Assembly: GCA_028277765.1 (NCBI GenBank)
Contig: JANQFQ010000076.1
Coordinates: 41,905 to 105,904 of the forward strand
DNA length: 64,000 nucleotides
DNA from: Desulfobacterales bacterium
GTDB lineage: Bacteria; Desulfobacterota; Desulfobacteria; Desulfobacterales; SURF-7
Direction: 5' to 3'
Each line of letters begins with the position of its first letter. Within the stretch, counting starts at the first letter, position 1. The position numbers were made by a program, and so were the translations under genes. Under the pieces are notes generated by a model. The model was not told the DNA's origin and searched no databases. It saw nothing but the letters and a program-made list of their open reading frames with translations. Positions 5,971 through 26,146 of the stretch are shown one piece after another.

Positions 5971-5973
5971 TTT

Positions 5974-6015
5974 TGATCCGTGAAAATCAGTGACATCCGC
6001 GTCATCCGTGTGCTA
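5974..6015. repeat. Dispersed 'atccgtgaaaatcagtg' type repeat
   Basis: Contains 'gatccgtgaaaatcagtg' followed by 'catccgcgtcatccgtgtg', the same phrase family as 391-428. It lies between the FabK-like gene and the first CoA-transferase and is non-coding. Confidence 0.55.
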
Positions 6016-6030
6016 TATCAATAAAATACA

Positions 6031-7221: not shown

Positions 7222-7230
7222 CAAAAGGAT

Positions 7231-7302
7231 GGTGGGCACAGCCCACCCTACGAAGTTGGTACCCAAAACTGTATGCCTCCCGTAGGGTGGGCTGTGCCCA
7301 CC
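7231..7302. repeat. Paired 22-bp inverted repeat of the GGTGGGCACAGCCCACC family
   Basis: Arms 7231-7252 and 7281-7302 are exact reverse complements with a 28-base spacer; each arm is itself a palindrome (GGTGGGC-aca-GCCCACC). Copies or partial copies recur at 17365, 58731 and 61347. It may act as a bidirectional hairpin behind the first CoA-transferase gene. Confidence 0.85.
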
Positions 7303-7538
7303 AAACTGATAAGGGGCGGGAAAAAGATAGAAGCATGTAAGAGATGGAGGATTTAAGCCCCACAGGGGCGGGATTATCCCGCTTAAGAGACTTTGCGCCT
7401 TAGCGTCTTTTTGCAGTGAAACGGAAATCCCGCTATCCGGGGGCGTGAAAACGTCTGTGTTTATCTGTGTGGGTCTGTGGCTAAAATGTTTTTAAAAATT
7501 AGTGCCAATTCGTGCAATTTGTGGCTAAAAAAATAAAA
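7303..7538. other. Intergenic stretch with degenerate dispersed repeats
   Basis: With the palindrome at 7231-7302 this makes about 317 bases without a gene. It holds phrases seen elsewhere in the window: 'actttgcgccttagcgtc' near 7391 (compare about 60010) and 'ttagtgccaattcgtgca' near 7500. The GTG at 7512 belongs to the latter phrase and is unlikely to be a start codon. Confidence 0.5.
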
Positions 7539-8723: not shown

Positions 8724-8780
8724 CGTATTTTAAATGCCTAAAGTAAAAATATAGTGCCTAAAGTGCCTAAAATGCGCTAA

Positions 8781-8933
8781 AGTGCCTAAAGTTGTGGAAT
8801 TCTGCCATTTATATTTTAAAAAAGCAGAGCAAAGCGATATTACAAGGCACTATAGAGCACTTTTTTAAACCCGATCACGACCACGACTTTTTTAAAACTG
8901 ACAGAGCGAAGCGATACATCAACTTTAGGCACT
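8781..8933. repeat. MITE-like element with 13-bp terminal inverted repeats
   Basis: AGTGCCTAAAGTT at 8781-8793 is mirrored by AACTTTAGGCACT at 8921-8933. Inside are two related copies of 'cagagcgaagcgata' (about 8826 and 8902) and 'gatcacgaccacgacttt'. The same words in opposite orientation ('gtggtatcgcttcgctctg') occur at 23660-24005 and 35810-36060. No coding capacity; no transposase in the window. Confidence 0.7.
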
Positions 8934-8960
8934 TTTTTTTATACACTTCCAGAGGAACAC

Positions 8961-9542
8961 ATGAATTATTTGGCCCATCTATTTCTGGCAAAGAATACAG
9001 ACTATTCCAGGCTTGGAAATTTTCTCGGCGATTTTGTTAAGGGGCGTAGGGAAAAGCTTTTAGATACATATCACCCGGAAATTGTGGACGGTATCACCTC
9101 CCATCGGCAGGTAGATACTTATACAGATAGACATAACGCAGTTAAAGACGCGGTTGCCATACTGAAACCGAGTCAAGGTCTGTTTTCTGGCATTGTGGTG
9201 GATGTTCTTTTTGATTATTTCCTGTCAAATCATTGGGAAACGTTTTCAGATATTGACAGACGACGGTTTATTGATGACTGCTATCGGTCATTAAGTGTGC
9301 CATTACCTGATCTTCCCGCGAGCTTTAATAGATTTCTCCCGATCCTGAAAGATTATGATATTTTAGATTCTTATCGTTCTTTTGATGGTATTGACCACGC
9401 ATTTTACCGAATTGATCTTCGGTGCAGAAGAGAAACAAACCTTAGTGAAGCAGTGTCAGACATAAAAAGGCATTATAACGACCTGGAAACACAGTTCCTT
9501 AGTTTTTTTTCGGATATTTGCGGATTTTGTAATAAAGCATGA
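8961..9542 (+). CDS. Acyl carrier protein phosphodiesterase (AcpH) family protein
   Basis: 193 aa, the usual size. MNYLAHLFLA, GNFLGDFVKG and GITSHRQVDTYTDRH are the diagnostic motifs of AcpH, an HD-like metal-dependent hydrolase that removes 4'-phosphopantetheine from holo-ACP. His and Asp residues of HRQVDTYTDRH are candidate metal ligands. The start follows the ribosome site CCAGAGGAACAC. The gene stands alone between a MITE-like element and the 3D-domain lipoprotein gene. Many members of the family are annotated by similarity only, so activity on ACP is likely but not certain. Confidence 0.85.
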   Translation: MNYLAHLFLAKNTDYSRLGNFLGDFVKGRREKLLDTYHPEIVDGITSHRQVDTYTDRHNAVKDAVAILKPSQGLFSGIVVDVLFDYFLSNHWETFSDIDRRRFIDDCYRSLSVPLPDLPASFNRFLPILKDYDILDSYRSFDGIDHAFYRIDLRCRRETNLSEAVSDIKRHYNDLETQFLSFFSDICGFCNKA

Positions 9543-9659
9543 AAACAGGACAGTGCCAACAATTCTTGACGATATATTCTTTTTGAGATTAAATAGAGAA
9601 AAATTTAATCTGGATAAATATTCCGGGATGGGTGCTGGAAAAGCGGTTCATGTAACTAT

Positions 9660-10190
9660 ATGAAGAAGATAATACTATTTTCAATTCTTATCTGTTTTGT
9701 AATGACAATAGGGTGCGCCAGGCCCAGAGTTTCAAAAACCATGGAGGTAACCGGTTACTGTGGGTGCGGGGATTGCTGCGGATGGGAAAGGGGGAGCTGG
9801 AAATATCTAAAGCTGAATTTCTGGAACCGTTATGTAAAGGCAGGCAAAAATAAAGGGAAACATTACTCTGGCCGTACCGCGAGCGGTACAAAACCGCATG
9901 AACCTTATCCCGGTCTTTTTTCAAAGGACAGCATCAAGCATCCATGGATGATACCGATACGGATTGTCTTATTTCCCTGGTTGTTTCTACCAAGAGACGG
10001 CACTTTAGCGGCTGACACAAAATACTATCCATTTGGTACCAGGATTTATATCCCTGGCTATGGGTATGGGGTTGTGGAGGATCGCGGTTCTGCCATAAAG
10101 GGGGCAAGCCGGCTGGATGCTTATTATAATTCGCATAAAGAAGCGCTGAAGTGGGGGAGAAGAAAGGTCTATTGCCGAATTGAGAGATAA
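9660..10190 (+). CDS. 3D-domain lipoprotein (MltA/Rpf-like fold)
   Basis: 176 aa. Type II signal with lipobox MTIGC (Cys19). The C-terminal half has the 3D motif: GTLAADTKYYPFGTRIYIPG, then VVEDRGSAIKG and RLDAYYNSHKEAL, with the three Asp residues (AADT, VEDRG, RLDAY) that define this double-psi barrel family, found in lytic transglycosylase MltA and resuscitation factors. The N-terminal CGCGDCCGW also matches family members that begin VTGYCGC. Predicted envelope-bound peptidoglycan-active protein, but these small 3D proteins lack a proven activity. The TPR lipoprotein follows after 70 bases. Confidence 0.85.
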   Translation: MKKIILFSILICFVMTIGCARPRVSKTMEVTGYCGCGDCCGWERGSWKYLKLNFWNRYVKAGKNKGKHYSGRTASGTKPHEPYPGLFSKDSIKHPWMIPIRIVLFPWLFLPRDGTLAADTKYYPFGTRIYIPGYGYGVVEDRGSAIKGASRLDAYYNSHKEALKWGRRKVYCRIER

Positions 10191-10260
10191 CCGTGTTTTG
10201 ACTTTCATACGGTACAAGTATAATCTGGATTTTATAATAGTTCAAAACAGGACCACAACA

Positions 10261-11193
10261 ATGAGACAGATCACTATTCTATTTATACTTATGTATACTG
10301 CTTTTATCTGCTCATGCGGAGGTAGCAGCGGTCAGCGGCAGGGCCCCAGGCACCTCCAGGCCGGGATGAAGGAGATCCAGAAAGGAACTTTCTGGTATAA
10401 TAAAGGATGTTATGATCAAGCAATGGAGTATTTCTCAGCAGCTCACGAGATGTTTACAGCTTCAGATCAGATTAATGGCGTAGCCATCTGTATGAACAAT
10501 ATTGGCAATATCTACAGGGTGACAGGAGACATTGACAAAGCTGTCCTTTTTTTTGAAGAGGCGTATAATATTTATTCAAACATCAATGATGTAAAAGGGA
10601 CCATGCAGGCCCTGTCCAACAAGGCTGCTGTACTTATTGATGCAGGCCGCCTTAAAGATGCTGAAAAAATTCTGCAGCAGGTTGAAAATATTACAAAAAA
10701 TGCCAATTCAACCTTTCTTCCACTTCTGAATAACCAGGGGATATTGCTCACCAAGCAGAAAAAATTCAAACAGGCTGAGGAGATCTTAAATAAAGCACTT
10801 GGCAAAACCGTTGGGCATAATTATCATGAATACGCGTCAGTAAATTTTGCCATGGGGAGCCTTATGCTTGAAACCGGCAGAAATGAAAGCGCAGTCAGTT
10901 TTTTTAAAAAAGCATTAAAAGCAGACCGGCATGCAGGATTTTATCAGGGCATAGCTGAAGGACTTGCTGCGATCGGTTCAGCAAAAGTTAATATGGGCAG
11001 TTATAAAGAAGCGGCTGATTATTTTAAACGGAGCATAAAAATTTATGCCCTTACTGGAAGCAAGGGACGGGTTGAAGAGGTTTTAAAGCAGCTGGAAGAA
11101 GCCGCGGAAAAGTCGGATATGGACATAACCGTTACAAAACATTTTGCGGACGCTTGGATGGATGGGAAAACTATTGCTGGACCATGCAATTGA
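10261..11193 (+). CDS. TPR-repeat lipoprotein
   Basis: 310 aa from ATG 10261. This start is chosen over an upstream in-frame ATG at 10180 because it gives a clean lipoprotein signal, MRQITILFILMYTAFICSCG, with Cys19 as the lipidated residue; the longer form overlaps the previous gene. Residues about 35-290 form at least six TPR units (ICMNNIGNIYRVTGDIDKAV, LSNKAAVLIDAGRLKDAEKI, LLNNQGILLTKQKKFKQAEE, GSLMLETGRNESAVSFFKKA). TPRs bind partner proteins; the lipid anchor places it at the envelope, perhaps with the neighbouring 3D-domain lipoprotein. Partner unknown. Confidence 0.85.
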   Translation: MRQITILFILMYTAFICSCGGSSGQRQGPRHLQAGMKEIQKGTFWYNKGCYDQAMEYFSAAHEMFTASDQINGVAICMNNIGNIYRVTGDIDKAVLFFEEAYNIYSNINDVKGTMQALSNKAAVLIDAGRLKDAEKILQQVENITKNANSTFLPLLNNQGILLTKQKKFKQAEEILNKALGKTVGHNYHEYASVNFAMGSLMLETGRNESAVSFFKKALKADRHAGFYQGIAEGLAAIGSAKVNMGSYKEAADYFKRSIKIYALTGSKGRVEEVLKQLEEAAEKSDMDITVTKHFADAWMDGKTIAGPCN

Positions 11194-15841: not shown

Positions 15842-16114
15842 TTATCGCTCATATATCAAGAAATTAAGCAGGCGCTTGAAGGCTGCCAGGAAAATTGAGG
15901 AAATAAGGAGTATTGGAATAATTACAACAAAACTAAGGTATAATAGAAGATACAGCACACCACAGTACTGAGACCAGGCATTAAACGAGGCTGTTCCGGA
16001 AAGTACGGATGTATATTCCCGAAAACCGAGCATATGGGTGCACGTAAAAAGCACGGACAGGGTAATTGCGTAAAACACAAATCGTTTGCAGGATAATGCT
16101 TTTGAATTATTCAT
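15842..16114 (-). CDS. Small membrane protein coupled to the upstream barrel-like gene
   Basis: 90 aa with two or three membrane helices (about 13-28 and 52-80). The ATG overlaps the end of the preceding gene by eight bases, and the ribosome site GAGAGGAGG lies inside that gene, so translation is coupled. No family recognised. Confidence 0.6.
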   Translation of the reverse strand: MNNSKALSCKRFVFYAITLSVLFTCTHMLGFREYTSVLSGTASFNAWSQYCGVLYLLLYLSFVVIIPILLISSIFLAAFKRLLNFLIYER

Positions 16115-17321
16115 AATTATTCCTCCTCTCTACTTCATCCCAGAGCGGCCCCAGAACCATGGCATACAGCATTACAGCATCACCCACAGGATTGCTTGCC
16201 ATATATCGCAGCCCGCTGTCAGATTCAGACGGAAATCCGACGAAATTTAACGACGTGAATAAACGGATTAAAAATTGTGTGTCATTAAATGCAGCAGCAG
16301 AAATAAGGGCAAGGCCGCTGGCGCTGGCACTGGCACCGAGTACAGGTATCACCGGACCGGAATCAACATCTGGCGTGCCTTCAATTACCAGGGGCCATTC
16401 GCGTGAAAAACCAAAGCCCAGAAAAGACCTGGCCAAATGCTCATGCGCCCGTTTATATTGATCTTCGGCAAACGGTTTGTCGATGAGTTGAAGCATGTTG
16501 CATGTCATCCAGATGGTGGAACCTTCAGGGCCATATCCGCTGTCAGCCGGGGTACCGTCAATACTGTATGCTGAAATCAGTAGCCCGGTTTCAGGGTTAA
16601 CAAGCTTTTGTTTAGCTGTTTCAAGCCATTGTTGAATAAAAGCAGAATTGCCGTTATTATCTAAGACGTCAGCGATGTGGATAGCTGCCAGACTGACAGT
16701 GTTGCAGAACAGCCAGCATTCGTCTGGATAGCTTTCCGCATTTTGTATCGGGCTCTGGCGCATGCGGAATATCATTTTATCCACTCTTTCAGATAGTATG
16801 GGTATATATGCTGGTTTTTCTTCTATAAGACGTCGGGCGCAAATCATGAGAGCGATCTCACCGTCAATAAACTGACTTCCGGACGGCTGGATTACCCAGC
16901 CACCCCTCCTGCCATACCCCATCAAGAAATGTGTAAATCCGTTTTTCTTTTCAACAGCCAGGGTGTTGTCAATAATGGCGTCAATGATTTCACAAGACTT
17001 AACTTTAAACGCTGTGTCTCGTAAGGCCATATTTGCCAGGGCCAGGACAAAATATGTGCGGCTCATGAAATCCCATTCAGGATTCAGGTTTTGCATTTTT
17101 TCAAGTTCAATATTTCGGAGGGATTCATTGGCCCATATTTCAAGATGTTTTGCGGCAATCATGTGCGCTTTTTGGGGTATTTGATCGGGACTATAATAAT
17201 ACGAAAGTTTCGGTTTGAAGATAAAGTGAACACACGGAAGCCAGATTGCCGTGGCTGTAATCAGTACAATTGTTTTGATTAAAAGTGATTTAATGAATGC
17301 AGGAGGATTGAAATTGTACAT
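16107..17321 (-). CDS. Membrane-anchored alpha/alpha-barrel-like protein, perhaps linalool dehydratase/isomerase-like
   Basis: 404 aa. One N-terminal membrane segment (about 12-33), then a helical repeat domain of alpha/alpha toroid style with paired helices and conserved aromatics: DFMSRTYFVLALANMAL, THFLMGYGRRGG, GEIALMICARRLIE, YPDECWLFCNTVSLAA and GPEGSTIWMTCNMLQLI. The order YPDECWLFCN then helices then GPEGS resembles the linalool dehydratase/isomerase-like family, but I cannot verify this; a six-hairpin glycosidase-like fold is the alternative. It starts the three-gene set with the two small membrane genes, behind the YkuD operon and on the same strand, separated from it by 66 bases with a palindromic repeat. 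Confidence 0.55.
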   Translation of the reverse strand: MYNFNPPAFIKSLLIKTIVLITATAIWLPCVHFIFKPKLSYYYSPDQIPQKAHMIAAKHLEIWANESLRNIELEKMQNLNPEWDFMSRTYFVLALANMALRDTAFKVKSCEIIDAIIDNTLAVEKKNGFTHFLMGYGRRGGWVIQPSGSQFIDGEIALMICARRLIEEKPAYIPILSERVDKMIFRMRQSPIQNAESYPDECWLFCNTVSLAAIHIADVLDNNGNSAFIQQWLETAKQKLVNPETGLLISAYSIDGTPADSGYGPEGSTIWMTCNMLQLIDKPFAEDQYKRAHEHLARSFLGFGFSREWPLVIEGTPDVDSGPVIPVLGASASASGLALISAAAFNDTQFLIRLFTSLNFVGFPSESDSGLRYMASNPVGDAVMLYAMVLGPLWDEVERRNNYE

Positions 17322-17364
17322 TAGTTATTCTCCTTATACAGAATAAGATTTTCAGCCGGAGAAT

Positions 17365-17381
17365 GGTGGGCTGTGTCCACC
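17365..17381. repeat. Single palindrome GGTGGGCTGTGTCCACC
   Basis: One slightly altered arm of the GGTGGGC-family repeat, lying just after the stop of the YkuD gene. It can fold as a short hairpin and may separate the two minus-strand transcription units. Confidence 0.65.
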
Positions 17382-17387
17382 AATGTT

Positions 17388-17915
17388 CTAAGGTTTAATT
17401 TCAATTGTTGCCCCGTTTGGCACCAGCTTCCATATCTCTTCGATCTCTTTGTTTGTTACGGCAATACACCCTTCGGTCCAATCTGAAAAGCGGTGCAGGC
17501 GGCCGAGCCATCTCCATTTTCCTGCTAAACCATGTATCGTGATATCTCCGCCAGGAGAGACCCCGAGTCTTTTCGCGTTCAGTTTATCCTCCGCGTCCGG
17601 ATAGGAGATGTGCAGGGATAGATGGCATATGCTTTTCGAGTTCCGATAATCAATAATATATGTCCCTTCAGGCGTTTTACCATCACCCTGTTTTTCTTTA
17701 TGACCTTTGGGTGTTCGTCCAAGTGAAATTTTATATTTCTTTATCTGTTTCCCTTTTGACATCAGGTGCAGACGCCTTTTACTTTTTTCAACAATGATTT
17801 TATCTGCTTTAATTCCTTTTTTGACAGGATCGTCTCGTTTTTTAGCATAAGCATTAATGGCAATGGCAGCGATAACTATCAAGAGAATACTGATCAAATA
17901 TTTTATGCATTTCAT
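17388..17915 (-). CDS. L,D-transpeptidase (YkuD) family protein
   Basis: 175 aa. N-terminal signal or anchor (residues 6-24). The YkuD domain covers about 38-175: DKIIVEKSKRRLHLMSKGK, GKTPEGTYIIDYRN, the conserved His in DITIHGLAG and the catalytic motif SDWTEGCIAV with the nucleophilic Cys. These enzymes form or exchange 3-3 cross-links in peptidoglycan or attach proteins to it, in the periplasm. The ATG overlaps the stop of the YiiX-like gene by four bases, so this is the last gene of a tight four-gene operon. Confidence 0.9.
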   Translation of the reverse strand: MKCIKYLISILLIVIAAIAINAYAKKRDDPVKKGIKADKIIVEKSKRRLHLMSKGKQIKKYKISLGRTPKGHKEKQGDGKTPEGTYIIDYRNSKSICHLSLHISYPDAEDKLNAKRLGVSPGGDITIHGLAGKWRWLGRLHRFSDWTEGCIAVTNKEIEEIWKLVPNGATIEIKP

Positions 17916-18547
17916 TTTTTTATTTCCTTTTTAGAATAAACTGTTTTCAGCAGCTTTGAATGATATATTCCGGCCGGCGATATGACGGTTTCTTCCAGGG
18001 GCAGGTCTTCACCAAAACGTTCTTTAAGCTTAGCTTTAACCACTGGATGGGAGAGATCAAATGTTTTAAACTTCTGAGGTTTGCCTAGCTCCAGGTTTAA
18101 TGCCTGTTTATAAATCTTCCAGATCAGTTCAGAGCAGTATATCCTATTATCAGACCATTCAAAATAAGGATCATAATTTTTGCCGATATACGATTGACTG
18201 ATTTTTTTCATTTTGGTTATTATTTTTGGTGTGAGGAGTTTGTCTGCGTTTTTCAGGCGTTTAACAACAAATCCAGAGGCGTTGCCACGTTTGATCCATT
18301 CATCAACCCTTGAAAGCCTGACCGGTTGTACTGCTTCAAGGACAAAGTATTTGTTGCCTTCTATAAAAATGATACCACAATGGTTGTAAGGTGAATCCGT
18401 TGCTAATTGAATGGCCTGGCTTTGGGATGAATTGGAAGAATGAAAAATAATGTCTCCGTTTTTAAGCAGTGTTTTATTTGCTGCAGAGGCTCCGCTAACA
18501 TAAAAAAACAGAACAATTGATAAGATTAATAGTATTTTCCTGAACAT
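17912..18547 (-). CDS. YiiX/YebB-like NlpC/P60-related cysteine hydrolase
   Basis: 211 aa. Signal peptide 1-22 (ends SGASA). Permuted papain-like motifs: KNGDIIFHSS near the N-terminus, the His in SPYNHCGIIFIEGN, YVLEA-type FVLEAVQPV, and the candidate nucleophile in NRIYCSELIWKIY. YiiX-like proteins are predicted amidases/peptidases acting on cell-wall peptides or lipids. Three bases separate it from the GH18-like gene upstream and it overlaps the YkuD gene downstream, strong evidence for a joint role in the wall. Confidence 0.85.
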   Translation of the reverse strand: MFRKILLILSIVLFFYVSGASAANKTLLKNGDIIFHSSNSSQSQAIQLATDSPYNHCGIIFIEGNKYFVLEAVQPVRLSRVDEWIKRGNASGFVVKRLKNADKLLTPKIITKMKKISQSYIGKNYDPYFEWSDNRIYCSELIWKIYKQALNLELGKPQKFKTFDLSHPVVKAKLKERFGEDLPLEETVISPAGIYHSKLLKTVYSKKEIKK

Positions 18548-18550
18548 AAA

Positions 18551-19537
18551 TTATTCTCCTGTAAAATTATTTTTTAAATACACCCATTCATCAGAATCCA
18601 TTTCCCATTCAGAATATATAGCGATGCCCTGATAACAGGGCGGTATTTTTTCAAATCTGCTAAGCCCTGCATTTATTCCGAGAAGACTGTTTTTTAGGTT
18701 TTCAACACGCGGGGTATGATAAGCAACCCCGAAATCATCATATACTGGCACACCCAGTAAAATTTTCGAATCTCCACCCCACAGAAGAACGTCTTCGGTC
18801 CATGACGCCATTAGGTTTTGATAGACTTTTTGGAGCTGAAGGGCTGTGTCATACATCATCACTGCCATCTGATCTACGGTTGAAGAAATTGTTTTAAAAT
18901 AATCTTCTTCCCAGTGGACCTTTACAGCCGGCTGAAGTAGCGACGGGGGAGGGTAGGCAGCGATAGAAAGGAGTTTTCCTTCTGGAAGAGCATTTTTCAG
19001 TTCGTTTAGCAGAAGTAAAAAATCCTTGTTGCCAGATGGCATTGGTTCAATATTGATATGAATTCCTGCAAGCCCAGGATACGCAGTGAGCAGTTCTTTT
19101 GCTGAAGCAATAAATGCTTTCCGCCATTTTTCCGATTCAGGGAAACAGTGCACATTCAGACGGCCGCCTATCCAAGGCATGACCCTAAATTCGCTGAAGT
19201 ACGTTAGGAATCTTTCCGTTTGCTTGTGATCAACCGAAGAGATCCTGCCGGTAGGTGAACACGGGCACAAGTGGGGATAAATATCCCGGATATTATGGGC
19301 TTCTAATTTTTTTGCCAGTTCATAAATTTTGCTTTGATCACGAAAAAGAGTTTTATCTTTACCTGTTTTCGCGAACCATTTGTCGTCCCCAAGCCATCCA
19401 TGCTGGAGCCAGATCCCGTTTGTTTTTAAATTGTGGTCGCCGCTGTTTGCTATTTTGCCTGGTGTCCAGATGGTATAGGTAATCACACCAACCAGTGCTA
19501 TTATCAATATAATATAAATTGTTTTTTTCTTTTTCAT
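18551..19537 (-). CDS. Membrane-anchored glycoside hydrolase 18-like TIM-barrel protein
   Basis: 328 aa. N-terminal anchor (about 5-24). The rest reads as a TIM barrel: GIWLQHGWLGDD, HNIRDIYPHLCP, FRVMPWIGG, GLAGIHINIEPMPSGN around residue 160, LLSIAAYPPP, VDQMAVMMYDTA and KILLGVPVYDDFG. The HINIEP strand takes the place of the DxxDxE catalytic strand of GH18, keeping the final Glu but not the first Asp, and MMYD is the typical next strand. It may cleave or bind GlcNAc-containing wall polymer; an inactive lectin-like form is possible. Its ATG overlaps the DUF1287 stop by four bases. Confidence 0.7.
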   Translation of the reverse strand: MKKKKTIYIILIIALVGVITYTIWTPGKIANSGDHNLKTNGIWLQHGWLGDDKWFAKTGKDKTLFRDQSKIYELAKKLEAHNIRDIYPHLCPCSPTGRISSVDHKQTERFLTYFSEFRVMPWIGGRLNVHCFPESEKWRKAFIASAKELLTAYPGLAGIHINIEPMPSGNKDFLLLLNELKNALPEGKLLSIAAYPPPSLLQPAVKVHWEEDYFKTISSTVDQMAVMMYDTALQLQKVYQNLMASWTEDVLLWGGDSKILLGVPVYDDFGVAYHTPRVENLKNSLLGINAGLSRFEKIPPCYQGIAIYSEWEMDSDEWVYLKNNFTGE

Positions 19538-20244
19538 TGATTAACCTTTTGCATTTCACTTATTCGAAAATGGCCCAAAATTTTCCATTTCTTAATTCGT
19601 ATACCCATTTTTGTGATACCGGTCAGGACATCTTGTTCTGCTGTTTTGCCGGGCAAGAAAAAAGGGACATATCTCATGTTATGGATGACCAATGGCCTAC
19701 CGGTTAGCCGAGACCGTTTATCTGATATAATACCGATATGGAGATGGGCTTTTGAGCCAGTATCCCAGATCACAATATCGCCGGGAAGCCAGTGTTTGTT
19801 TTTTTTGTCTGTTTTAACAGAGAGTTTTTTATAGTTTCGGTTAAAATATCGTAACAGCAGCCATACCCTTCTGTGGTCGATATATTTATCGGGCTGTTTT
19901 ACGCCATAATATGTTTTGTTCTTCACAATATCCTCATGTACAAGTTTCTGAAGATCAACACCCGCGTTTCTATACGCTCTTACAACAAGGTCAGAGCATA
20001 CACCCTGTATGGGATTAACATCGCCGTTTGGATAGATGCTTATATCATACTTTTTTCCATTTAAGTATGTGGGCGGATAATATGTTTTCAGCATTTTAGT
20101 ATTGTATTTTGTTTTGTTGGTAACTTCTTTTTTTGCGCCTTCAAGGACTTTTTGATTTAAATTGTCACATAATGCCGGCTTTATAAAACAAAAAAACAAT
20201 AGAATGAATAAAGCTATTATAAATGAGTTTGAATGTTTGTTCAT
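19534..20244 (-). CDS. DUF1287 family exported protein (NlpC/P60-like)
   Basis: 236 aa. Signal peptide 1-26. Family landmarks: YDISIYPNGDVNPIQGVCSD, DLVVRAYRNAGVDLQKLVHE, IDHRRVWLLLRYF, GDIVIWDTGSKAHLHIGIIS and LVIHNMRYVP. The Cys in GVCSDLVVRAY and the His in AHLHIGI fit an NlpC/P60-like catalytic pair, so a cell-wall peptidase or amidase is suspected; no activity is established. First gene of the operon DUF1287, GH18-like, YiiX-like, YkuD. A terminator-like hairpin separates it from creD. Confidence 0.88.
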   Translation of the reverse strand: MNKHSNSFIIALFILLFFCFIKPALCDNLNQKVLEGAKKEVTNKTKYNTKMLKTYYPPTYLNGKKYDISIYPNGDVNPIQGVCSDLVVRAYRNAGVDLQKLVHEDIVKNKTYYGVKQPDKYIDHRRVWLLLRYFNRNYKKLSVKTDKKNKHWLPGDIVIWDTGSKAHLHIGIISDKRSRLTGRPLVIHNMRYVPFFLPGKTAEQDVLTGITKMGIRIKKWKILGHFRISEMQKVNQ

Positions 20245-20316: not shown

Positions 20317-21660
20317 TTAATCCTTTTTCTCAAATTTAATCGCATACCAGTCGATTTTTCTGGTCATGTACATAACGATACTCAGCATCACAAACAGACC
20401 GATACTCCCCATGGAGAGTGTATAGTCCTTAAGCTGCAAGAGTATGTACATATAAGAATAAAGTGCGATAAGGACACTACAAACCATGGCTGATAATTTT
20501 GTGTTTTTAAGAATGCTTTTTGCATAGCCGGTTATCAAAAGAATGATTGATATACTAGATACAGCATAGGCTATGTTAAAGTTTATATGTTCTGATAAGG
20601 AAATCAGAAGGGAGTAAAAGACAATTATCGCAAGGCCGATCAGTAAATACTGTATGGGATGCACTCTTAATTTGTTCATAACTTCAGATATAAAGAACGC
20701 TGTAAATGTAAGCACAATAAACAATAAGGCATATTTTGTTGTTCGCATTGATTTCTGATAAATATCTACAGGGATATACAGGTTAACGCCAAACGCAGAT
20801 TTTTGCAAACGGTATCTTCCGCCGGTCCAGGTTTGCGGATAATCTCTGTTTAAATGAAGGATTTTCCATTCCGCGTTAAATCCTTTTTCCTCTTTTTCTC
20901 TGATGGTATACTTCAACGGCATATAGGCACCGCAAAAACTTGGATTTGTCCAGGTTGACTTCATTTTAACGGTTGTTGTTTTGCCAACCGGTATAAAATC
21001 AATTTTATGGCAGCCATTAAGATTGATAATGAATTTAAAAGGGTATTTTTTATTCATTTCATCAAGACTTATTTTTGAGCTGATACCGGAACAGATAATA
21101 TCATTTGATTCAATACCTGGGCTCATGGAAAGTGAATGATCGTTAAATGTTGCCATAATCTGATCTTTTATGCCGCGCATATCTGTGATACCAATAGAAA
21201 TAGACGCGCCAGACCAGAGAATATTCTCAGGAGGAATATTGATCCCTTTTATTTGTGGACATGAAAAGTTGCCGGTTAATTCTAATTTAGCATTATATAA
21301 GGCCACTTCATAAATTCCTCTGTGCCGCGGAACAGGCGAGATGTCACTCGCTATAACAATATCATCAGGGAGAATATGTATAAAACTGGTGGCAGCTATC
21401 TTTCTTCCCCTTGAATCAATCTGGTTTGTCCTATACGGTATAGAAATGATCGGTCCTGTTATGGTCTGCTCATGGCCCCACTTTGAACTGATTTCATTGA
21501 TAACTGCCTTCTTTCTCCCTTCTCTTTCACGGATTAGAGATTTAATCATCGGGGTCGGTATCAGCAGGATCAGGATCAGGATAACGATGGTAACAATTTT
21601 AAAGCTTACTGAATTGTTCATGGTAATAGGTAATTTTTTAAAAGGTTTTGGTTGCTCCAT
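20317..21660 (-). CDS. creD: Inner-membrane protein CreD
   Basis: 447 aa. N-terminal membrane helix (about 20-44), a large periplasmic domain with KAVINEISSKWGHEQTITGP, ISIPYRTNQIDSRG and RHRGIYEVALYNAKL, then five or six C-terminal helices (about 325-437). This is the CreD layout; it is the classic target of the CreBC two-component system and its overproduction changes envelope properties in E. coli. The ATG follows AAAAAGGAGGTAATAAC, an excellent site. The likely CreB operator is 78-115 bases upstream. creBC itself is 2.4 kb further upstream, with an NlpC-like gene, a small gene and an exosortase in between. Confidence 0.92.
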   Translation of the reverse strand: MEQPKPFKKLPITMNNSVSFKIVTIVILILILLIPTPMIKSLIREREGRKKAVINEISSKWGHEQTITGPIISIPYRTNQIDSRGRKIAATSFIHILPDDIVIASDISPVPRHRGIYEVALYNAKLELTGNFSCPQIKGINIPPENILWSGASISIGITDMRGIKDQIMATFNDHSLSMSPGIESNDIICSGISSKISLDEMNKKYPFKFIINLNGCHKIDFIPVGKTTTVKMKSTWTNPSFCGAYMPLKYTIREKEEKGFNAEWKILHLNRDYPQTWTGGRYRLQKSAFGVNLYIPVDIYQKSMRTTKYALLFIVLTFTAFFISEVMNKLRVHPIQYLLIGLAIIVFYSLLISLSEHINFNIAYAVSSISIILLITGYAKSILKNTKLSAMVCSVLIALYSYMYILLQLKDYTLSMGSIGLFVMLSIVMYMTRKIDWYAIKFEKKD

Positions 21661-21737
21661 GTTATTACCTCCTTTTTATCTAAAGCGTTAAATAGCTATG
21701 AGCTTTGTCCCTTTTAGCTTCAGAGTAAATCATAAGT

Positions 21738-21775
21738 TTGAAATAATGATGAAAGAACTGTGAATTTTTCATGAA
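21738..21775. promoter_or_regulatory. Predicted CreB operator upstream of creD (four half-sites)
   Basis: On the + strand: TTGAA 21738-21742, ATGAA 21749-21753, GTGAA 21760-21764, ATGAA 21771-21775, each separated by exactly six bases. Read on the coding strand these are TTCAT-N6-TTCAC-N6-TTCAT-N6-TTCAA, close to the established cre tag TTCAC-N6-TTCAC. The 11-bp phase puts all half-sites on one helix face. The same pattern in the same order precedes the exosortase gene. Confidence 0.75.
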
Positions 21776-21938
21776 AATGTGTCTCCTGAAAATTGTAGAT
21801 TATCATCCGAATAATCCGCCAAAAAAGGAAACGGGCCTTTGCTAAAAGTGGTTTAACGAAAAATTGCGCAATATCTCAAACCCCAAACTTTTTTGGTCGG
21901 AGTTCATTCGTGGTTAGCTTCTAAATCAATTTTTCTTT

Positions 21939-22670
21939 TTAAAAATAGTCATAATTGATGAAAAATTCTTGGTTAAGTAACCATTTCTCAATCATAGATT
22001 CATCAAATAGTTTCCCAAATACAATATAATCAGAGCTCAATAATGTCGGCGAAAAATTCGGGTACTCGGAGAGTACAAATAGATATCCATGTGCATGAGT
22101 AAAACGAATCTTATCATTAAGGTTCAAGATAAATCCAACATGAGAATCTAAACCAATTATATAAATACCTTCACCCATTTTTTTTATATGATTTTTTAGA
22201 GTATCAATAGAAATATGAGAAAATCTTTTGACATAATTACTCTGAATAAGATTTTTGATAATATTTTCAGAGGGTTGAATCGCCATTTTAGAATTAATAT
22301 TAAAATTACAATTTCGAAGAACATGAACAACAAAAAATCCGCATGCTATAGTTCCATCTAAAGGATATTCGGCATCTCCATTAAACGACCATGGTGTACC
22401 ATACCATGCAGGTAATACTGTATCTGAAATTACTTGGTTAAGATAATTTTGAATTTCTTTATATAATTTTTCTTTTTCTTGTTTTGATGAAGCAAGTTTA
22501 TAGGATTTGACAAATTTGATCTTTTTATTCTTAATCTCTTCTAATGTTTCTGGATATTTATATTTATTCCAAATGCAACATCCACCAAATATTAAAACCG
22601 AACAAATAATGGAGAATCCGAAAGTAATTAAAAATCTTTTTAAAAGTAGTATAAAATTCTTTGATAACAT
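21939..22670 (-). CDS. Exported NlpC/P60-like cysteine protein, function unknown
   Basis: 243 aa. N-terminal anchor, possibly a lipoprotein signal (FGGC, Cys31). After a helical linker comes a region with WYGTPWSFNGDAEYPLDGT and IACGFFVVHVLRNCN, where the Cys of IACGFFV is the candidate nucleophile, then GLDSHVGFIL with the candidate His. This Cys/His order is that of NlpC/P60 or related papain-like folds. Flanked by creD and the exosortase region on the same strand, but 36 bases from the small gene upstream and with no operator of its own visible, so it may be read with the exosortase. Base composition is more AT-rich than its neighbours. Confidence 0.65.
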   Translation of the reverse strand: MLSKNFILLLKRFLITFGFSIICSVLIFGGCCIWNKYKYPETLEEIKNKKIKFVKSYKLASSKQEKEKLYKEIQNYLNQVISDTVLPAWYGTPWSFNGDAEYPLDGTIACGFFVVHVLRNCNFNINSKMAIQPSENIIKNLIQSNYVKRFSHISIDTLKNHIKKMGEGIYIIGLDSHVGFILNLNDKIRFTHAHGYLFVLSEYPNFSPTLLSSDYIVFGKLFDESMIEKWLLNQEFFINYDYF

Positions 22671-22706
22671 ATCTGATTCTATCTTCGGAAGCTAACATTC
22701 AGGGTA

Positions 22707-22958
22707 TCAACTCCCTGGTAATTTTCTTATCAAAGAGACGGTTGAACATTTAATATCATTACTCCGGCAATCTAACCTTTCTGTCGCTTTTTTGAGCCTT
22801 TTGTTGCTTTGTGCCAACCGCTTTTTATTAAGTCCCTCTTTGTTGTAGACTTGGATTAACGCGTGCATAACACTGTAATACCGGTGACAGTCGCTTGAAA
22901 TCGCTAAAAAAATCAGAAAAGGGTTTTCGATCCATTTTATCTTATGGGTTTCGTGCAT
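22707..22958 (-). CDS. Small basic protein translationally coupled to the exosortase
   Basis: 83 aa, basic, with many Lys/Arg in the second half (LNKKRLAQSNKRLKKATERL). Not recognised. Supported by context: the ATG overlaps the end of the exosortase gene by 17 bases and a GGAGG ribosome site sits seven bases ahead of it, inside that gene. The frame is otherwise unremarkable, so a non-coding alternative remains possible. Confidence 0.45.
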   Translation of the reverse strand: MHETHKIKWIENPFLIFLAISSDCHRYYSVMHALIQVYNKEGLNKKRLAQSNKRLKKATERLDCRSNDIKCSTVSLIRKLPGS

Positions 22959-23568
22959 ATATGCCTCCTTTGAGCAGAAAAAATAAAAAGATTAAAAAAA
23001 ACAGATACACAAACATGCCCTCTGCCATATGGAGCTTGTCTGCTATTTTGCTTGATGAGAAAATATCCTGAACAGGTGCCAATGACATGGCACCAAGAAT
23101 TCTTGATGTGTTAGCTGCTATGGTTATGCAGTAAGCGACAAAGACAGACTGAACAAGTATGATTGTTTTTTTAAAAGGGGCGATTTTTATATGAAGAGAA
23201 GTATAAACCGCCAGAGAAACAGATATGGCAAGGAAGTTTATTCCTGAACATCCTTTATTTATTAAAACAAGCGAATCAGCCCTCATGAATCCCTGACCAT
23301 TAATAAAAAGAAAGGATTCACCGGAAAACAGGCTTACCAACTTTGACGTTGGATAGAGTATCCACAGCAGGTCAACAACTTCAGCGGTCTGGTACCAGAG
23401 TTTCAATGTTAAAACACCCACAAAAGCAGTCAGTGCAAAAATAAATTCCAGGGAAAAAATGGTTTCCTGGATTTTACACGCTGAATCGCTTAACCGGTTG
23501 TCTGTAAGCCTGAAATTGTTCATCATCCTGTTCCATTTGTTTAACGTTTTGTCTGCCTTAAGACACAT
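22942..23568 (-). CDS. xrtK: Exosortase, XrtK-like
   Basis: 208 aa with about six membrane helices. Exosortases are membrane cysteine enzymes that process C-terminal sorting signals of exported proteins. The catalytic triad is visible: Cys in LINKGCSGINFLAI, Arg in AANTSRILGAM, and His in DKLHMAEGMFVYL. The N-terminal LKLWYQTAEVVDLLWILYPT fits the short exosortase K type, which from memory partners MSEP-CTERM proteins; no such substrate is in the window. Start uncertain: ATG 23568, or the double ATG about 42 bases downstream. Upstream lies a CreB-type operator identical in layout to that of creD, and creCB is the next complete locus. Confidence 0.8.
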   Translation of the reverse strand: MCLKADKTLNKWNRMMNNFRLTDNRLSDSACKIQETIFSLEFIFALTAFVGVLTLKLWYQTAEVVDLLWILYPTSKLVSLFSGESFLFINGQGFMRADSLVLINKGCSGINFLAISVSLAVYTSLHIKIAPFKKTIILVQSVFVAYCITIAANTSRILGAMSLAPVQDIFSSSKIADKLHMAEGMFVYLFFLIFLFFLLKGGIYARNP

Positions 23569-23615
23569 GTTCAGAGGCTTTGCGTCTTGTTTTGATTTTA
23601 TTGTAGGTGAAGACT

Positions 23616-23653
23616 TTGAAAAAATTATGAATGAAATGTGAATTGTGTATGAA
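23616..23653. promoter_or_regulatory. Predicted CreB operator upstream of the exosortase gene
   Basis: On the + strand: TTGAA 23616-23620, ATGAA 23627-23631, GTGAA 23638-23642, ATGAA 23649-23653, all spaced by six bases. The half-sites, their order and their phase are the same as at 21738-21775, while the spacer bases differ, as expected for a conserved binding site rather than a copied sequence. It is 48-85 bases before the start codon. Confidence 0.75.
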
Positions 23654-23659
23654 AAACAA

Positions 23660-24005
23660 AGTGCCTAGAGTGCCTAAAGTGCGCTAAAGTGCCTAAAGTT
23701 GTGGTGTCGCTTCGCTCTGCCAGTTTTAAAAAGTCGTGATAGTTACAAGTGCCTTAAGTTATAAGTGCCTAAAGTTGTGGTATCGCTCCACTCTGCCAGT
23801 TTATAAAAGTCGTGATTGGGTTAGAAACAGTGATTAGTAATTAGAGAAGAGATAGAGGGCTTATGGTATTATTGTATAGGGTGTATGGCGGGATTCCTCC
23901 CGCTATGTTGTTATCTAGTACCCAGCATCCAGTATCTAGTAGTAAGTGCCTAAAGTTGTGGTATCGCTTCGCTCTGTTAGTTTTAAAAAGTCGTGGTCAG
24001 CGGAG
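23660..24005. repeat. Array of degenerate 'gtgcctaaagttgtggtatcg' repeats
   Basis: Most of the gap between the exosortase and creC. The phrase 'agtgcctaaagttgtgg' appears three times or more (about 23686, 23766, 23941), each followed by 'tatcgcttcgctctg' and 'gttttaaaaagtcgtg', the same words as the MITE-like element at 8781. Between copies sits 'acccagcatccagtatcta' (about 23921), another dispersed phrase. Non-coding. Confidence 0.65.
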
Positions 24006-24020
24006 CGGTGGCGTAAAAGC

Positions 24021-25457
24021 TTAGGAACGTTTTAACGGTAGTGTTAATACAGCCCGGGCACCTTGGGGAGTGCGGTTTTCAAGGTGGATGCTCCCGTTGT
24101 GAAGGTTGGCGATCTCTTTGACAAAGTTCAGGCCAAGGCCGGTGCTTTTTTTTCCGTTTCCAGGCCGCTGCATGGAGAAGAATTTTTCAAACACTTTTTC
24201 ATGGGCAAAATCCTGCAGGCCTGGGCCCTGGTCTTCAACAATAAACTGTAGGTTGTCTTTTTCAGTTTTGATCGTTATGGTGAGTTGGCTGTCCGGCGGA
24301 CTGAAATCTGAGGCATTTTGAACCAGGTTGGAGACAGCCTGCCTAAGGAGAAAGGAGTCTCCCATAATGGTAACGTCTTTTTCATAATTTTTAACCATTT
24401 TAAGCCTGTTTTGCGACAGGATGGGCATGATGCTTTCAAGAACGTCATCCACCAGTTCTTTAAAAGGGACAGCCTCGTTCTTGTCAAGGGAGTTCCGGCT
24501 TTCAAGGGAAGAGAGGGCGAGCATCCTGTCCACAAGCTGCTGTATCCGGTCTGTTTCATTTTGAATATTGGTTAAGAATCTTGACCGCTGCTCTGGGGGC
24601 ATCTCTTCTTCAAGCAGTTCCGAAGCGCCCTGGATGGCTGAAATTGGGCTTTTAATTTCATGGGTCAGGGCCTGTACGTATTTTTCAACGTACTTTTTAC
24701 CTTCAAGGGCCTCCCGCATTTTTTCAAACGCCCGGCCCATATCCCCGATTTCGCTCCGGTCGAGTTTCGGCAATTCAGCCTTTTTACCTTCACGAATATA
24801 ATTGGCATACCGGGTCAGGAGCTTAATCGGCCTTGTAATCAGTAGCATGATAATGATACTCGCACTTATTACAAAGAATATTACAGCAAAGCTCCGTATC
24901 TTTATCCTTAATTTTGCGATTTTAAGAAAATTGTTGATGCTGGTAGTTGGTTTGGCTACCGTAAGAACCCCGCCAATGTCATTGTTGATCATTATTGGGG
25001 CCGCGACAAACAGGGTTGAGGTGGCAGGATTATATGGATCTTCCTGGGTGGAACGGGCGCCGTATTTTCCCTGAAGTGTTAAATGAACATCTCTCCACTG
25101 TGAATAATCACTTCCAATTGCATCCTTTTTTTTTGAATCAAAAATCAGAATGCCGTTTTTATCGGTTATGTATACCCTGACATCAACCCTTTCTTTATTC
25201 ATCTTATAAATTTGAGCGGACAGTTTGGTGCCGTAAATCCGGCCAAACAGCATATGGAGTTTTTCAGGGGAAAAATTATCGGCTTCAATTTCGCTGGATA
25301 TAAAGGAAGCGAGAACACGCGCCTGATCCACAAGCGCGTCTTCTACACCCTCAAGATAACGGAAACGGATGTTCTGGCGTTCACCATGCACCAGAAAATA
25401 GATGCCGAGACTGAATATGAGGAGGTAGCTTAATAGAATCTTGCTTCCTAATTTCAT
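24021..25457 (-). CDS. creC: Sensor histidine kinase CreC
   Basis: 478 aa. Membrane helix near the N-terminus (about 7-22), a periplasmic sensing domain with YGARSTQEDP typical of CreC, a second helix (about 187-207), HAMP linker, then the dimerisation domain with the phosphorylated His in ALTHEIKSPISAIQG, N box SNLVQNASDFSPP, G1 VEDQGPG and G2 STGLGLNFVKEI. Autophosphorylates and passes phosphate to CreB. The start overlaps the creB stop by four bases (ATGA). The signal is unknown; in enterobacteria it responds to carbon and fermentation state and to wall stress. Likely controls creD and the exosortase here. Confidence 0.92.
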   Translation of the reverse strand: MKLGSKILLSYLLIFSLGIYFLVHGERQNIRFRYLEGVEDALVDQARVLASFISSEIEADNFSPEKLHMLFGRIYGTKLSAQIYKMNKERVDVRVYITDKNGILIFDSKKKDAIGSDYSQWRDVHLTLQGKYGARSTQEDPYNPATSTLFVAAPIMINNDIGGVLTVAKPTTSINNFLKIAKLRIKIRSFAVIFFVISASIIIMLLITRPIKLLTRYANYIREGKKAELPKLDRSEIGDMGRAFEKMREALEGKKYVEKYVQALTHEIKSPISAIQGASELLEEEMPPEQRSRFLTNIQNETDRIQQLVDRMLALSSLESRNSLDKNEAVPFKELVDDVLESIMPILSQNRLKMVKNYEKDVTIMGDSFLLRQAVSNLVQNASDFSPPDSQLTITIKTEKDNLQFIVEDQGPGLQDFAHEKVFEKFFSMQRPGNGKKSTGLGLNFVKEIANLHNGSIHLENRTPQGARAVLTLPLKRS

Positions 25458-26146
25458 AGATCCTCTTTAAGGGAATATCCGAGGCTCCGGTGGGTCTGAA
25501 TAGGATCCAAATCTGGCTTTATTTCTTTTAGTTTTCTTCTGATATTTTTTATGTGCGCGTCAACCGCCCTGTCCATGCTCATCTCCGGTTCATCCCATAC
25601 CAGATCCATTAAATGCTCCCGGGAAAAAATATGGCCGGGCCGGTTGATAAAAATGCAGAGGAGTTTGTATTCATACCTGGACAGGTCGATTTTTTCTGAA
25701 AAATAGGATATCTGGAAACGGTCCTCATCCACCTGAAAAGCCTTAGAAAGGTTCTCTTTTGATGCATAAGAAGACACGGACTGTGTTCGTCTCAGGATCG
25801 CCCGGACCCTGGCAGCAAGTTCTCGTGGACTGAAAGGTTTTACAATATAATCATCAGCCCCTATTTCAAGGCCCACAACACGGTCGATTTCTTGTGAACG
25901 CGCGGTCAGAAAAACAATCGGGACAGTATGGTGTTTTCTTATATCCCTGCACAGTTCAGTTCCGCTGATATCAGGGAGGCCTATATCGAGCACAACCAGG
26001 TCAACAGGCTCATCTGATAGCAAAGCAAGGACATCTTTACCACAAGAGTGCCACACAGTTTCAAACCCTTCTGTTTCCAGGGCGAATTTAATATTGTCGG
26101 CTATGGCTGGTTCATCTTCTACTATAAGGATTTTTGGTTTCATCAT
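25454..26146 (-). CDS. creB: Response regulator CreB (OmpR/PhoB type)
   Basis: 230 aa. Receiver domain 1-120 with acidic pair VEDEP, phosphorylated Asp in VVLDIGLPD, Thr in VFLTARS and Lys in IVKPFSPREL. Residues about 135-230 are a winged helix (LSRYEYKLLCIFINRPGHIF, SMDRAVDAHIKNIRRKLKEI). DNA target in enterobacteria is TTCAC-N6-TTCAC; arrays of that type occur before creD and the exosortase gene but none was found ahead of creB itself. A second in-frame ATG three bases in is an equal start candidate. Confidence 0.92.
   Translation of the reverse strand: MMKPKILIVEDEPAIADNIKFALETEGFETVWHSCGKDVLALLSDEPVDLVVLDIGLPDISGTELCRDIRKHHTVPIVFLTARSQEIDRVVGLEIGADDYIVKPFSPRELAARVRAILRRTQSVSSYASKENLSKAFQVDEDRFQISYFSEKIDLSRYEYKLLCIFINRPGHIFSREHLMDLVWDEPEMSMDRAVDAHIKNIRRKLKEIKPDLDPIQTHRSLGYSLKEDL

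What the first reader, a model, noticed from the sequence alone, without database searches (positions are those of the whole stretch)
23616..23653. Identical operator layout before an exosortase gene: exosortase predicted in the CreBC regulon
The same ordered set TTGAA-N6-ATGAA-N6-GTGAA-N6-ATGAA appears 48-85 bases before the XrtK-like gene. All four half-sites match those before creD base for base while the spacers differ, which is the pattern of selection on a binding site. Exosortases are usually viewed as housekeeping sorting enzymes; control by a stress-type two-component system would be a new link between CreBC and protein sorting or surface remodelling.
Basis: partly seen in the sequence, partly recalled or inferred. 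Interest (0 to 1): 0.8.

Follow-up and report, generated by a model that had tools for sequence, protein, structure and literature searches.

The report
Stress-switch operator before exosortase gene
A four-copy DNA motif sits in front of an exosortase (protein-sorting) gene, and the same motif stands before exosortase cassettes that also carry the CreBC stress-sensor genes in many related bacteria, so this sorting enzyme is likely switched on by CreBC, in relatives together with the surface protein it is predicted to process.

Summary
In detail: both arrays are exact, 20 of 20 half-site bases agree, 7 of 18 spacer bases differ. In gene direction they read TTCAT-N6-TTCAC-N6-TTCAT-N6-TTCAA, four tandem cre-tag-like half-sites. 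The genome has three exact arrays: before creD, before xrtK, and upstream of a MoxR/VWA operon.

Relatives support and extend the interpretation. XrtK passes its cut-off in 31 of 389 genomes of the order; 29 of 31 have CreC, against 17 of 358 without XrtK. In 27 of 30 fetched loci the array precedes a VIT/VWA protein gene with a PEP-type tail, then xrtK, mostly then creB-creC; the other three are two contig ends and an N gap. A -10-like hexamer lies 11 nt after the array. Of 11 XrtK loci with no CreB in view, none has an array. In two genomes the whole cassette is missing behind a kept array.

So XrtK and its target look like one CreBC-controlled sorting cassette. Against it: exact arrays also occur in 34 of 343 genomes without CreC, and no tailed target was found in the window's genome. 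Binding and expression are untested.

The parts
23616..23653 (-). predicted CreB operator of xrtK: TTCAT-N6-TTCAC-N6-TTCAT-N6-TTCAA, four half-sites with 11-bp period
   Evidence: exact match; one of three exact sites in the genome; same kind of array before VIT/VWA-xrtK genes in 27 of 30 order loci
23600..23605 (-). -10-like hexamer TACAAT, 11 nt after the last TTCA of the array
   Evidence: sequence read; 11-nt spacing
22942..23568 (-). xrtK, exosortase K, 208 aa; Cys107, Arg156 and His180 invariant in 31 of 31 aligned XrtK; no C-terminal extension
   Evidence: TIGR04287 108.5 bits against cut-off 55; alignment; extension not found in 21601-24100 by tblastn
21738..21775 (-). predicted CreB operator of creD, same four half-sites
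21722..21727 (-). -10-like hexamer TACTCT, 11 nt after the last TTCA
   Evidence: sequence read
20317..21660 (-). creD
   Evidence: NF008712 489.6 bits against cut-off 275; PF06123
24021..25457 (-). creC, sensor kinase
   Evidence: NF008312 568.3 bits against cut-off 356
25454..26146 (-). creB, response regulator; 47% identical to E. coli CreB
   Evidence: NF008296 321.7 bits against cut-off 273; BLASTP
21939..22670 (-). 243-aa ORF between xrtK and creD, no family match; possibly co-transcribed with xrtK
   Evidence: no hit in NCBIfam or Pfam
16107..20244 (-). five genes on the same strand after creD: DUF1287, GH18, YiiX-like C92, YkuD-domain, unassigned; possible creD operon of envelope enzymes
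   Evidence: operon inferred from strand and spacing only

Best explanation
The four tandem TTCAN half-sites at 23616-23653 are likely a CreB operator that would recruit RNA polymerase to xrtK, because they end 11 nt before a -10-like hexamer (TACAAT) and the same array with the same spacing stands before creD and before exosortase cassettes beside creBC in relatives. Inferred working: CreC senses an envelope or metabolic disturbance and phosphorylates CreB. CreB dimers, probably two, occupy the 11-bp repeats in place of a -35 element and activate transcription. In relatives the first gene behind the array encodes a VIT/VWA protein with a PEP-CTERM-like tail, the second is xrtK, the third and fourth are mostly creB and creC. 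The stress would thus raise the substrate, its sorting enzyme and its own regulator together. Shown here: arrays, spacing, gene order, tail, co-occurrence, absence of the cassette as a block in two genomes of one genus. Inferred: CreB binding, activation, cleavage of the tail by XrtK, nature of the signal. In the window genome the array stands directly before xrtK and no tailed target was found, so there the promoter is probably kept while the original target has been lost, moved or missed by the assembly.
For: (1) Arrays exact and rare. (2) creD, described as the common tightly controlled CreBC gene (PMC4689548, passages: tag TTCACN6TTCAC upstream of creD; TTCACN6TTCAA in S. maltophilia), has the same array here. 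Of 13 full-length or nearly full-length creD loci of relatives read, 7 have a 0-1 mismatch array directly before creD (L269, L270, L273, L276, L281, L302, L303) and in 2 the array overlaps the 5' end of the longest frame (L278, L291). (3) 27 of 30 order XrtK loci have the array before the VIT/VWA gene, 22 with 0 and 5 with 1 mismatch; the 31 XrtK genomes fall in 17 families. (4) The -10-like hexamer was not part of the search pattern: A at its second place in 30 of 30 and T at its sixth in 25 of 30 arrays; in a second set of 20 arrays 19 and 14. (5) CreC in 29 of 31 XrtK genomes against 17 of 358 others, Fisher p about 1e-29, not corrected for kinship. (6) Among 80 named loci XrtK with CreB: 10 of 11 have an array (the miss is L121, the same place as L055); XrtK without CreB in view: 0 of 11, plus L138, cut after xrtK, with an array. 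(7) Phylum sample: 4 of 4 further XrtK loci have the cassette behind an array with 0-2 mismatches. (8) In G233 and G300, of the genus of G120, flanks 87-93% identical to G120 continue without about 5.1 kb, from just after the -10 region to the last bases of creC: array kept, VIT/VWA-xrtK-creB-creC absent as a block. (9) E. coli K-12 creD has TTCAC-N6-TTCAC, a further TTCA, then 11 nt and CATAGT.
Against: No binding or expression data. The motif is not exclusive to CreB genomes: 34 of 343 genomes without CreC also have an exact array. creD has no array within 3 mismatches in G128 and G093 and none within 1 in L279 and L282. The window's own creB has no array (no site with up to 2 mismatches nearby). 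The window genome lacks a tailed target, and its XrtK is the shortest not cut by a contig end and lacks the C-terminal part conserved in 29 of 31. In L059 and L069 xrtK has the array and VIT gene but no creB in the 1.6 and 2.4 kb that follow. The genomes are related, so counts are not independent.
Confidence: 0.82

Rival explanations
1. The array belongs to another OmpR/PhoB-type regulator with the same 11-bp repeat, and its place beside creBC is due to gene clustering.
For: Exact arrays occur in 34 of 343 genomes without CreC. G317, which has CreBC, also has two TTCAC-type arrays in a region with an efflux-like gene and another kinase gene (L088; efflux gene named by eye).
Against: In the named loci the array goes with CreB: 10 of 11 XrtK loci with CreB have it, 0 of 11 without CreB in view. 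It also stands before creD in genomes that have CreBC but no XrtK and about 350-440 bp upstream of creB in G082 (L085), where xrtK and creBC are on different contigs. Some arrays without CreC are left-overs: empty sites in G233 and G300, a broken VIT gene in G152, creD in G315.
Confidence: 0.1
2. In the window the xrtK array is a relic: the VIT/VWA target gene was lost, xrtK is decaying, and control by CreBC no longer matters in this genome.
For: No tailed target found; XrtK is short and differs at positions 104-105, conserved in 29 of 31; relatives of G120 show that an array can stand without its cassette.
Against: Reading frame and Cys/Arg/His are intact, all four half-sites and the -10-like hexamer are kept, and the assembly is 92% complete, so a target may be missing from it.
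Confidence: 0.35
3. The two arrays in the window are a recent local duplication and carry no regulatory meaning for xrtK.
For: Same half-sites in the same order, 1.9 kb apart.
Against: Spacers differ at 7 of 18 bases and the printed flanks do not resemble each other; relatives whose VIT/VWA proteins are 52-67% identical to the first sequence of the alignment keep the array, most of them in genomes without creD.
Confidence: 0.03

Closest known systems
CreBC/BlrAB two-component system and its cre/blr tag (E. coli, Aeromonas, Pseudomonas, Stenotrophomonas)
   Same: CreB, CreC and CreD over the curated cut-offs; TTCAN half-sites with 11-bp period before creD; 11 nt from the last TTCA to a -10-like hexamer, as seen in E. 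coli creD
   Different: Four half-sites instead of the published two; in the XrtK genomes the array serves a VIT/VWA-exosortase cassette, and only 6 of 31 match PF06123, one with a fragment
Proteobacterial dedicated sortase system (TIGR03784/03785/03787/03788)
   Same: One VIT/VWA target beside its own sorting enzyme and a two-component pair (system make-up from model names and PMC3237569 passages); 4 of 4 targets tested match TIGR03788 over most of their length (395-421 bits)
   Different: Sorting enzyme is an exosortase and the tail PEP-like instead of LPXTG; regulators are CreBC; target scores lie below the TIGR03788 cut-off of 551.65
PEP-CTERM/EpsH systems with PrsK/PrsR (PMC1569441, passages)
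   Same: A two-component system linked by a shared upstream DNA motif to PEP-CTERM genes
   Different: PrsR is a sigma-54-interacting regulator and the motif holds a sigma-54 site; here an OmpR-type regulator, an array in the place of the -35, and one target per cassette
VIT/VWA proteins with GlyGly-CTERM, LPXTG or PEP-CTERM tails (PMC3237569, passages)
   Same: The same protein family with exchangeable sorting tails, PEP-CTERM with an exosortase in Verrucomicrobium spinosum
   Different: The passages read name neither XrtK nor CreBC
XrtN system VIT protein (TIGR04477)
   Same: VIT protein assigned to one exosortase
   Different: Different exosortase family; known here only as an NCBIfam model name

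Membership tests
Exosortase K (TIGR04287) | score over curated cut-off | tested here: met
   108.5 bits against 55
Exosortase K (TIGR04287) | Cys, Arg, His of the exosortase active site | tested here: met
   C107, R156, H180 invariant in 31 of 31 aligned; conserved Cys, Arg, His of the family named in PMC1569441
Exosortase K (TIGR04287) | PEP-tailed VIT/VWA target beside it (feature of relatives, not of the model) | tested here: not met
   30 of 30 fetched order loci have it (29 read PEP, L049 AEP), the window does not; none found in the genome
Exosortase K (TIGR04287) | cleavage of the target tail | not testable with these tools
   needs an assay
CreBC regulon | true CreB and CreC in the genome | tested here: met
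   321.7 against 273 and 568.3 against 356 bits
CreBC regulon | published tag TTCACN6TTCAC, exact, upstream of the gene | tested here: not met
   xrtK array is TTCATN6TTCACN6TTCATN6TTCAA; each neighbouring pair differs from the tag in at least one base; the S. maltophilia variant TTCACN6TTCAA shows that the tag is not strict
CreBC regulon | same operator as creD of the same genome | tested here: met
   20 of 20 half-site bases
CreBC regulon | CreB binding and CreB-dependent expression | not testable with these tools
   needs footprint or reporter
Proteobacterial dedicated sortase system | target over TIGR03788 cut-off | tested here: not met
   395.8-420.8 bits in 4 of 4 targets given, cut-off 551.65
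Proteobacterial dedicated sortase system | LPXTG tail and TIGR03784 sortase | tested here: not met
   tails are xEP, membrane segment, basic end in 30 of 30 and the adjacent gene is XrtK; TIGR03784 itself was not searched for

The most novel reading that the evidence does not exclude
CreBC is the built-in switch of a self-contained, stress-responsive surface-display cassette: one operator turns on a VIT/VWA protein, its private exosortase and the sensor pair that controls them, and the whole block is gained and lost as a unit. The VIT/VWA protein is an envelope-stress effector whose anchor is exchangeable in evolution (LPXTG sortase, rhombosortase, XrtK, an XrtQ-like exosortase in Methylomonas), while CreBC and the operator stay with it in Desulfobacterota and some Gammaproteobacteria. 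creD and VIT/VWA-exosortase would then be alternative outputs of one ancient CreB operator.
Probability: 0.5. Interest if true: 0.8.

Novelty: new variant of a known kind. Interest (0 to 1): 0.68.

Why it matters
It gives XrtK a predicted single target and a predicted regulator, both directly testable. It widens CreBC, known mainly from beta-lactamase control, metabolism and CreD in gamma-proteobacteria, to protein sorting at the cell surface. The 2006 PEP-CTERM paper (PMC1569441, passage) said that further regulatory proteins and DNA motifs remained to be found for such systems; this is a candidate with a defined operator and a fixed promoter geometry.

Tried and rejected
PEP-CTERM target in the window genome: seven VPEP[E/D/G]-coding sites, none in a C-terminal tail with a membrane segment and basic end (variants such as TPEP or AEP were not searched that way); PF07589 no match over cut-off; tail profile A2 gave the first 16 positions of the C65 VIT/VWA protein (E 2e-5) and four hits at E 0.1 or worse, not followed. 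The VIT/VWA proteins found in the genome carry other ends: C65 an AgmX/PglI-like C-terminal domain, just under the NF033768 cut-off, and C22 lies beside a rhombosortase gene. The XrtK C-terminal extension was not found around the window's xrtK.

Window XrtK as a protein query: only itself and one weak relative, and no genome contig by degenerate patterns; the family model and the target alignment worked instead. A tblastn of CreB against plasmids gave no use.

A tandem-repeat origin of the array is rejected for the xrtK and creD sites, since the spacers within each differ, but fits several of the 68 array-bearing genomes (identical units, for example G006, G266, G284); these were left in the counts. 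In loci with more than four half-sites (L047, L060) the downstream register was taken for the promoter alignment.

Papers: searches for exosortase with CreBC, XrtK (no relevant paper), exosortase with two-component and von Willebrand, proteobacterial dedicated sortase, exosortase with VIT domain, exosortase K gave nothing on this link; the library holds open-licence papers only. PMC3256604 (archaeosortases and exosortases) and PMC2395042 (cited by PMC4689548 among its CreBC references) are not held, so a mention of XrtK or of longer cre arrays there cannot be excluded. No paper was read whole: passages only, listings otherwise.

Full report
OBSERVATION. Both arrays are present exactly as described: 23616-23653 and 21738-21775, 0 mismatches, no other match at up to 3 mismatches in the window, shuffle mean 0.01. 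The half-sites agree at 20 of 20 bases, the spacers at 11 of 18. Since xrtK, creD, creC and creB are all on the minus strand, the array reads TTCAT-N6-TTCAC-N6-TTCAT-N6-TTCAA in gene direction, which is the form of the published cre/blr tag TTCACN6TTCAC and of the S. maltophilia variant TTCACN6TTCAA (PMC4689548, passages read), but with four half-sites.

WHOLE GENOME. Three exact TTCA-N7 x4 sites exist in the 4.89-Mb assembly: before creD, before xrtK, and at G000:C6:259-295 upstream of an operon with a MoxR ATPase, an ABC transporter pair (named by eye), a DUF58 protein and two VWA proteins. With one mismatch allowed there are five sites and no backward-read control hit; with two mismatches 15 and 3.

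RELATIVES. XrtK passes its cut-off in 31 of 389 genomes of the order, 54 match at E 0.001; the 31 are spread over 17 families. I fetched 30 loci, all but the window's own. A VIT/VWA gene lies directly upstream of xrtK in 30 of 30 (partial at contig ends in L048 and L054, shortened in L060). All 30 end in xEP, a hydrophobic stretch and basic residues, as a PEP-CTERM signal does; 29 read PEP, L049 AEP. creB was found beside xrtK in 27 of 30. Of the others, L071 is cut at a contig end (another contig of that genome holds an xrtK end with creB-creC, L299), while L059 (1.6 kb seen) and L069 (2.4 kb seen) have no creB there; the genome of L069 has creBC on another contig, with an array some 350-440 bp upstream of creB (L085). 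In L066 creBC point towards xrtK instead of following it. The array stands before the VIT/VWA gene in 27 of 30, 22 with 0 and 5 with 1 mismatch; the other three are contig ends (L048, L054) and a locus with a 100-N run at the gene's start (L055). In some loci the longest frame of the VIT/VWA gene starts upstream of the array (for example L065, L310, L312); start codons were not verified.

PROMOTER GEOMETRY. Aligning 30 arrays (27 loci, the two of the window, and C6) on the TTCA letters shows one further conserved block that the search had not asked for: a hexamer like yATAAT, 11 nt after the last TTCA, with A at its second place in 30 of 30 and T at its sixth in 25 of 30. The mean match to TATAAT peaks at that offset (3.93 of 6; offsets 0-34 otherwise 0.83-2.30). 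A second set of 20 arrays (creD, creD-like and named VIT loci) peaks at the same offset (3.45), with 19 and 14 of 20 at the two places; the runner-up there is offset 9 at 2.90. The window's own hexamers are TACAAT for xrtK and TACTCT for creD. E. coli K-12 creD shows TTCAC-N6-TTCAC, then a TTCA one base out of phase, then 11 nt and CATAGT. The array thus ends where a -35 element would be, the layout of an activator-dependent promoter as known for PhoB-type regulators (recalled). A plain sigma-70 consensus scan gives no support for an ordinary promoter here: two 9-of-12 matches overlap the xrtK array region, and the region as a whole has 12 matches against 9.2 (sd 3.2) in shuffles.

CO-OCCURRENCE. 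CreC over cut-off is in 46 of 389 genomes. It is in 29 of 31 XrtK genomes and 17 of 358 without XrtK (Fisher p about 1e-29, not corrected for kinship). The two exceptions are G019 (79% complete) and G084 (only fragments of creB and creC near a contig end). Exact arrays occur in 34 of 46 CreC genomes and 34 of 343 without CreC. The second number matters: the letters alone are not a CreB signature. Of those 34, G019 and G084 have XrtK; some are plain tandem repeats; G152 has a broken VIT gene and G315 creD behind the array; G233 and G300 are empty sites (below); behind the arrays of G105, G247 and G143 I recognised no family; several are TTCAC-type arrays that I did not work out. Among CreC genomes without XrtK, creD follows the array in L269, L270, L273, L276 and L281, and an unassigned gene in L271, L272, L274 and L275, followed in three of these by a gene with the C-terminal part of CreD. 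So creD and the VIT/VWA-xrtK genes look like alternative users of one operator. Not all creD genes have it: none within 3 mismatches for G128 and G093, none within 1 in L279 and L282.

LOSS AS A BLOCK. G233 and G300, of the same genus as G120, have neither XrtK nor CreC over the cut-off but carry the array of G120 letter for letter. BLAST against G120 shows the two flanks, 87-93% identical, with about 5.1 kb of G120 missing between them (G120 coordinates 5787-10895 in the reversed locus L053): it starts just behind the -10 region and ends within the last bases of creC, so VIT/VWA, xrtK, creB and creC are absent together. The junction is the same in both, so this is one event, and its direction (loss or gain) is inferred from the array left in place.

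NAMED LOCI AS A CONTRAST. A scan with the VIT/VWA alignment gave 80 named loci, the best 80 of 548. By script and by reading of its exceptions: 55 loci show neither XrtK nor an EP tail; 1 of them has an array (L125, cut within the VIT gene), 54 have none (a few of these are also cut at the end, and L152 has no upstream sequence). 23 have XrtK. Of these, 11 have CreB in view, 10 with array (L121, the same place as L055, has none). 11 have no CreB in view and no array (Acidobacteria, Lachnospiraceae, Nitrospirae, a Sorangium, a Desulfobulbaceae; in L185 and L199 about 1 kb or less is seen downstream; L131 has another regulator-kinase pair behind xrtK, its regulator at 135.7 bits against the CreB cut-off of 273). 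One, L138, has the array and is cut after xrtK. L182 and L197 (Gammaproteobacteria, the latter Methylomonas) have the array and a tailed VIT/VWA protein with a different exosortase, nearest to XrtQ but under its cut-off (182.7 and 194.6 against 270); L197 has creB-creC in front. Seven of the 80 repeat order loci (six by equal contig length, L121 by near-equal length), so only part is independent; the four other CreB loci have the array in 4 of 4 against 0 of 11 (Fisher p 0.0007). The script's tail rule missed L122 and L151, whose tails I read by eye (L122 from L053).

REPLICATION. A phylum sample of 395 genomes gave, besides the window's own, four XrtK genomes outside the order. All four have array, VIT/VWA gene, xrtK, creB, creC; arrays with 0, 1, 1 and 2 mismatches, each followed after 11 nt by a hexamer starting TA. 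One of them, L311, is the same contig as L126 by length.

THE WINDOW'S SPECIAL CASE. Here creB-creC lie upstream of xrtK, the VIT/VWA gene is absent, and the array stands directly before xrtK. No tailed target was found in the genome. XrtK keeps Cys107, Arg156 and His180 but lacks the C-terminal part conserved in 29 of 31. I read this as a cassette that has lost or displaced its target, with the promoter kept, or a target missed in a 92% complete assembly. This is the weakest part of the case.

VERDICT. The better description is that XrtK and its VIT/VWA target form a CreBC-linked sorting cassette, an exosortase counterpart of the dedicated Gram-negative sortase cassette. Binding, activation, processing and signal are inferred.

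Noticed in passing
G000:C22 (L115, 955-3755): The window's genome has a VIT/VWA protein directly followed by a rhombosortase gene (TIGR03902 102.7 bits, cut-off 84), another sorting solution for the same protein family.
   Followed up: partly
G000:C65 (L113, 1477-3921): Another VIT/VWA protein (815 aa) keeps the QPLPLP..VSNYAVG stretch of the XrtK targets but carries an AgmX/PglI-like domain (39.6 bits, cut-off 40) in place of the PEP tail; the 54 untailed named loci score best with this protein.
   Followed up: partly
G000:C6:259-295 (L017): Third exact array, upstream of a MoxR-DUF58-VWA-ABC operon: a further predicted CreBC target.
   Followed up: partly
L182:4615-5963 and L197:9992-11283: Gammaproteobacterial cassettes with an XrtQ-like exosortase followed by a small protein resembling the C-terminal part of XrtT.
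   Followed up: partly
L190, L192, L195, L199: Lachnospiraceae (Gram-positive) with VIT/VWA proteins ending in a SEP-type tail and an adjacent XrtK-like gene, without CreB in view or array.
   Followed up: no
L104 (G019:C81): Exact array before a NagZ-like beta-N-acetylhexosaminidase (NF003740 161.8 bits, below its cut-off of 207).
   Followed up: no
L271, L272, L274, L275: In CreC genomes without XrtK an array precedes an unassigned protein of about 400-540 aa; in L271, L274 and L275 the next gene matches the C-terminal part of the CreD family.
   Followed up: partly
23680-24000: Short repeats (gtgcctaaagttgtggtatcgct...) between creC and the array; the same phrase is seen on the reverse strand near the C6 array.
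   Followed up: no
21939-22670: 243-aa ORF between xrtK and creD, by eye AT-rich and like an NlpC/P60-type enzyme, no family match.
   Followed up: no
L286, L288, L289: Broken VIT/VWA remains behind intact arrays: L288 in a genome with a full cassette elsewhere; L286 an array with the first 72 residues, perhaps the displaced 5' end of the gapped gene in L055; L289 (G247), by eye, an array with only the first codons of a VIT-like start.
   Followed up: partly
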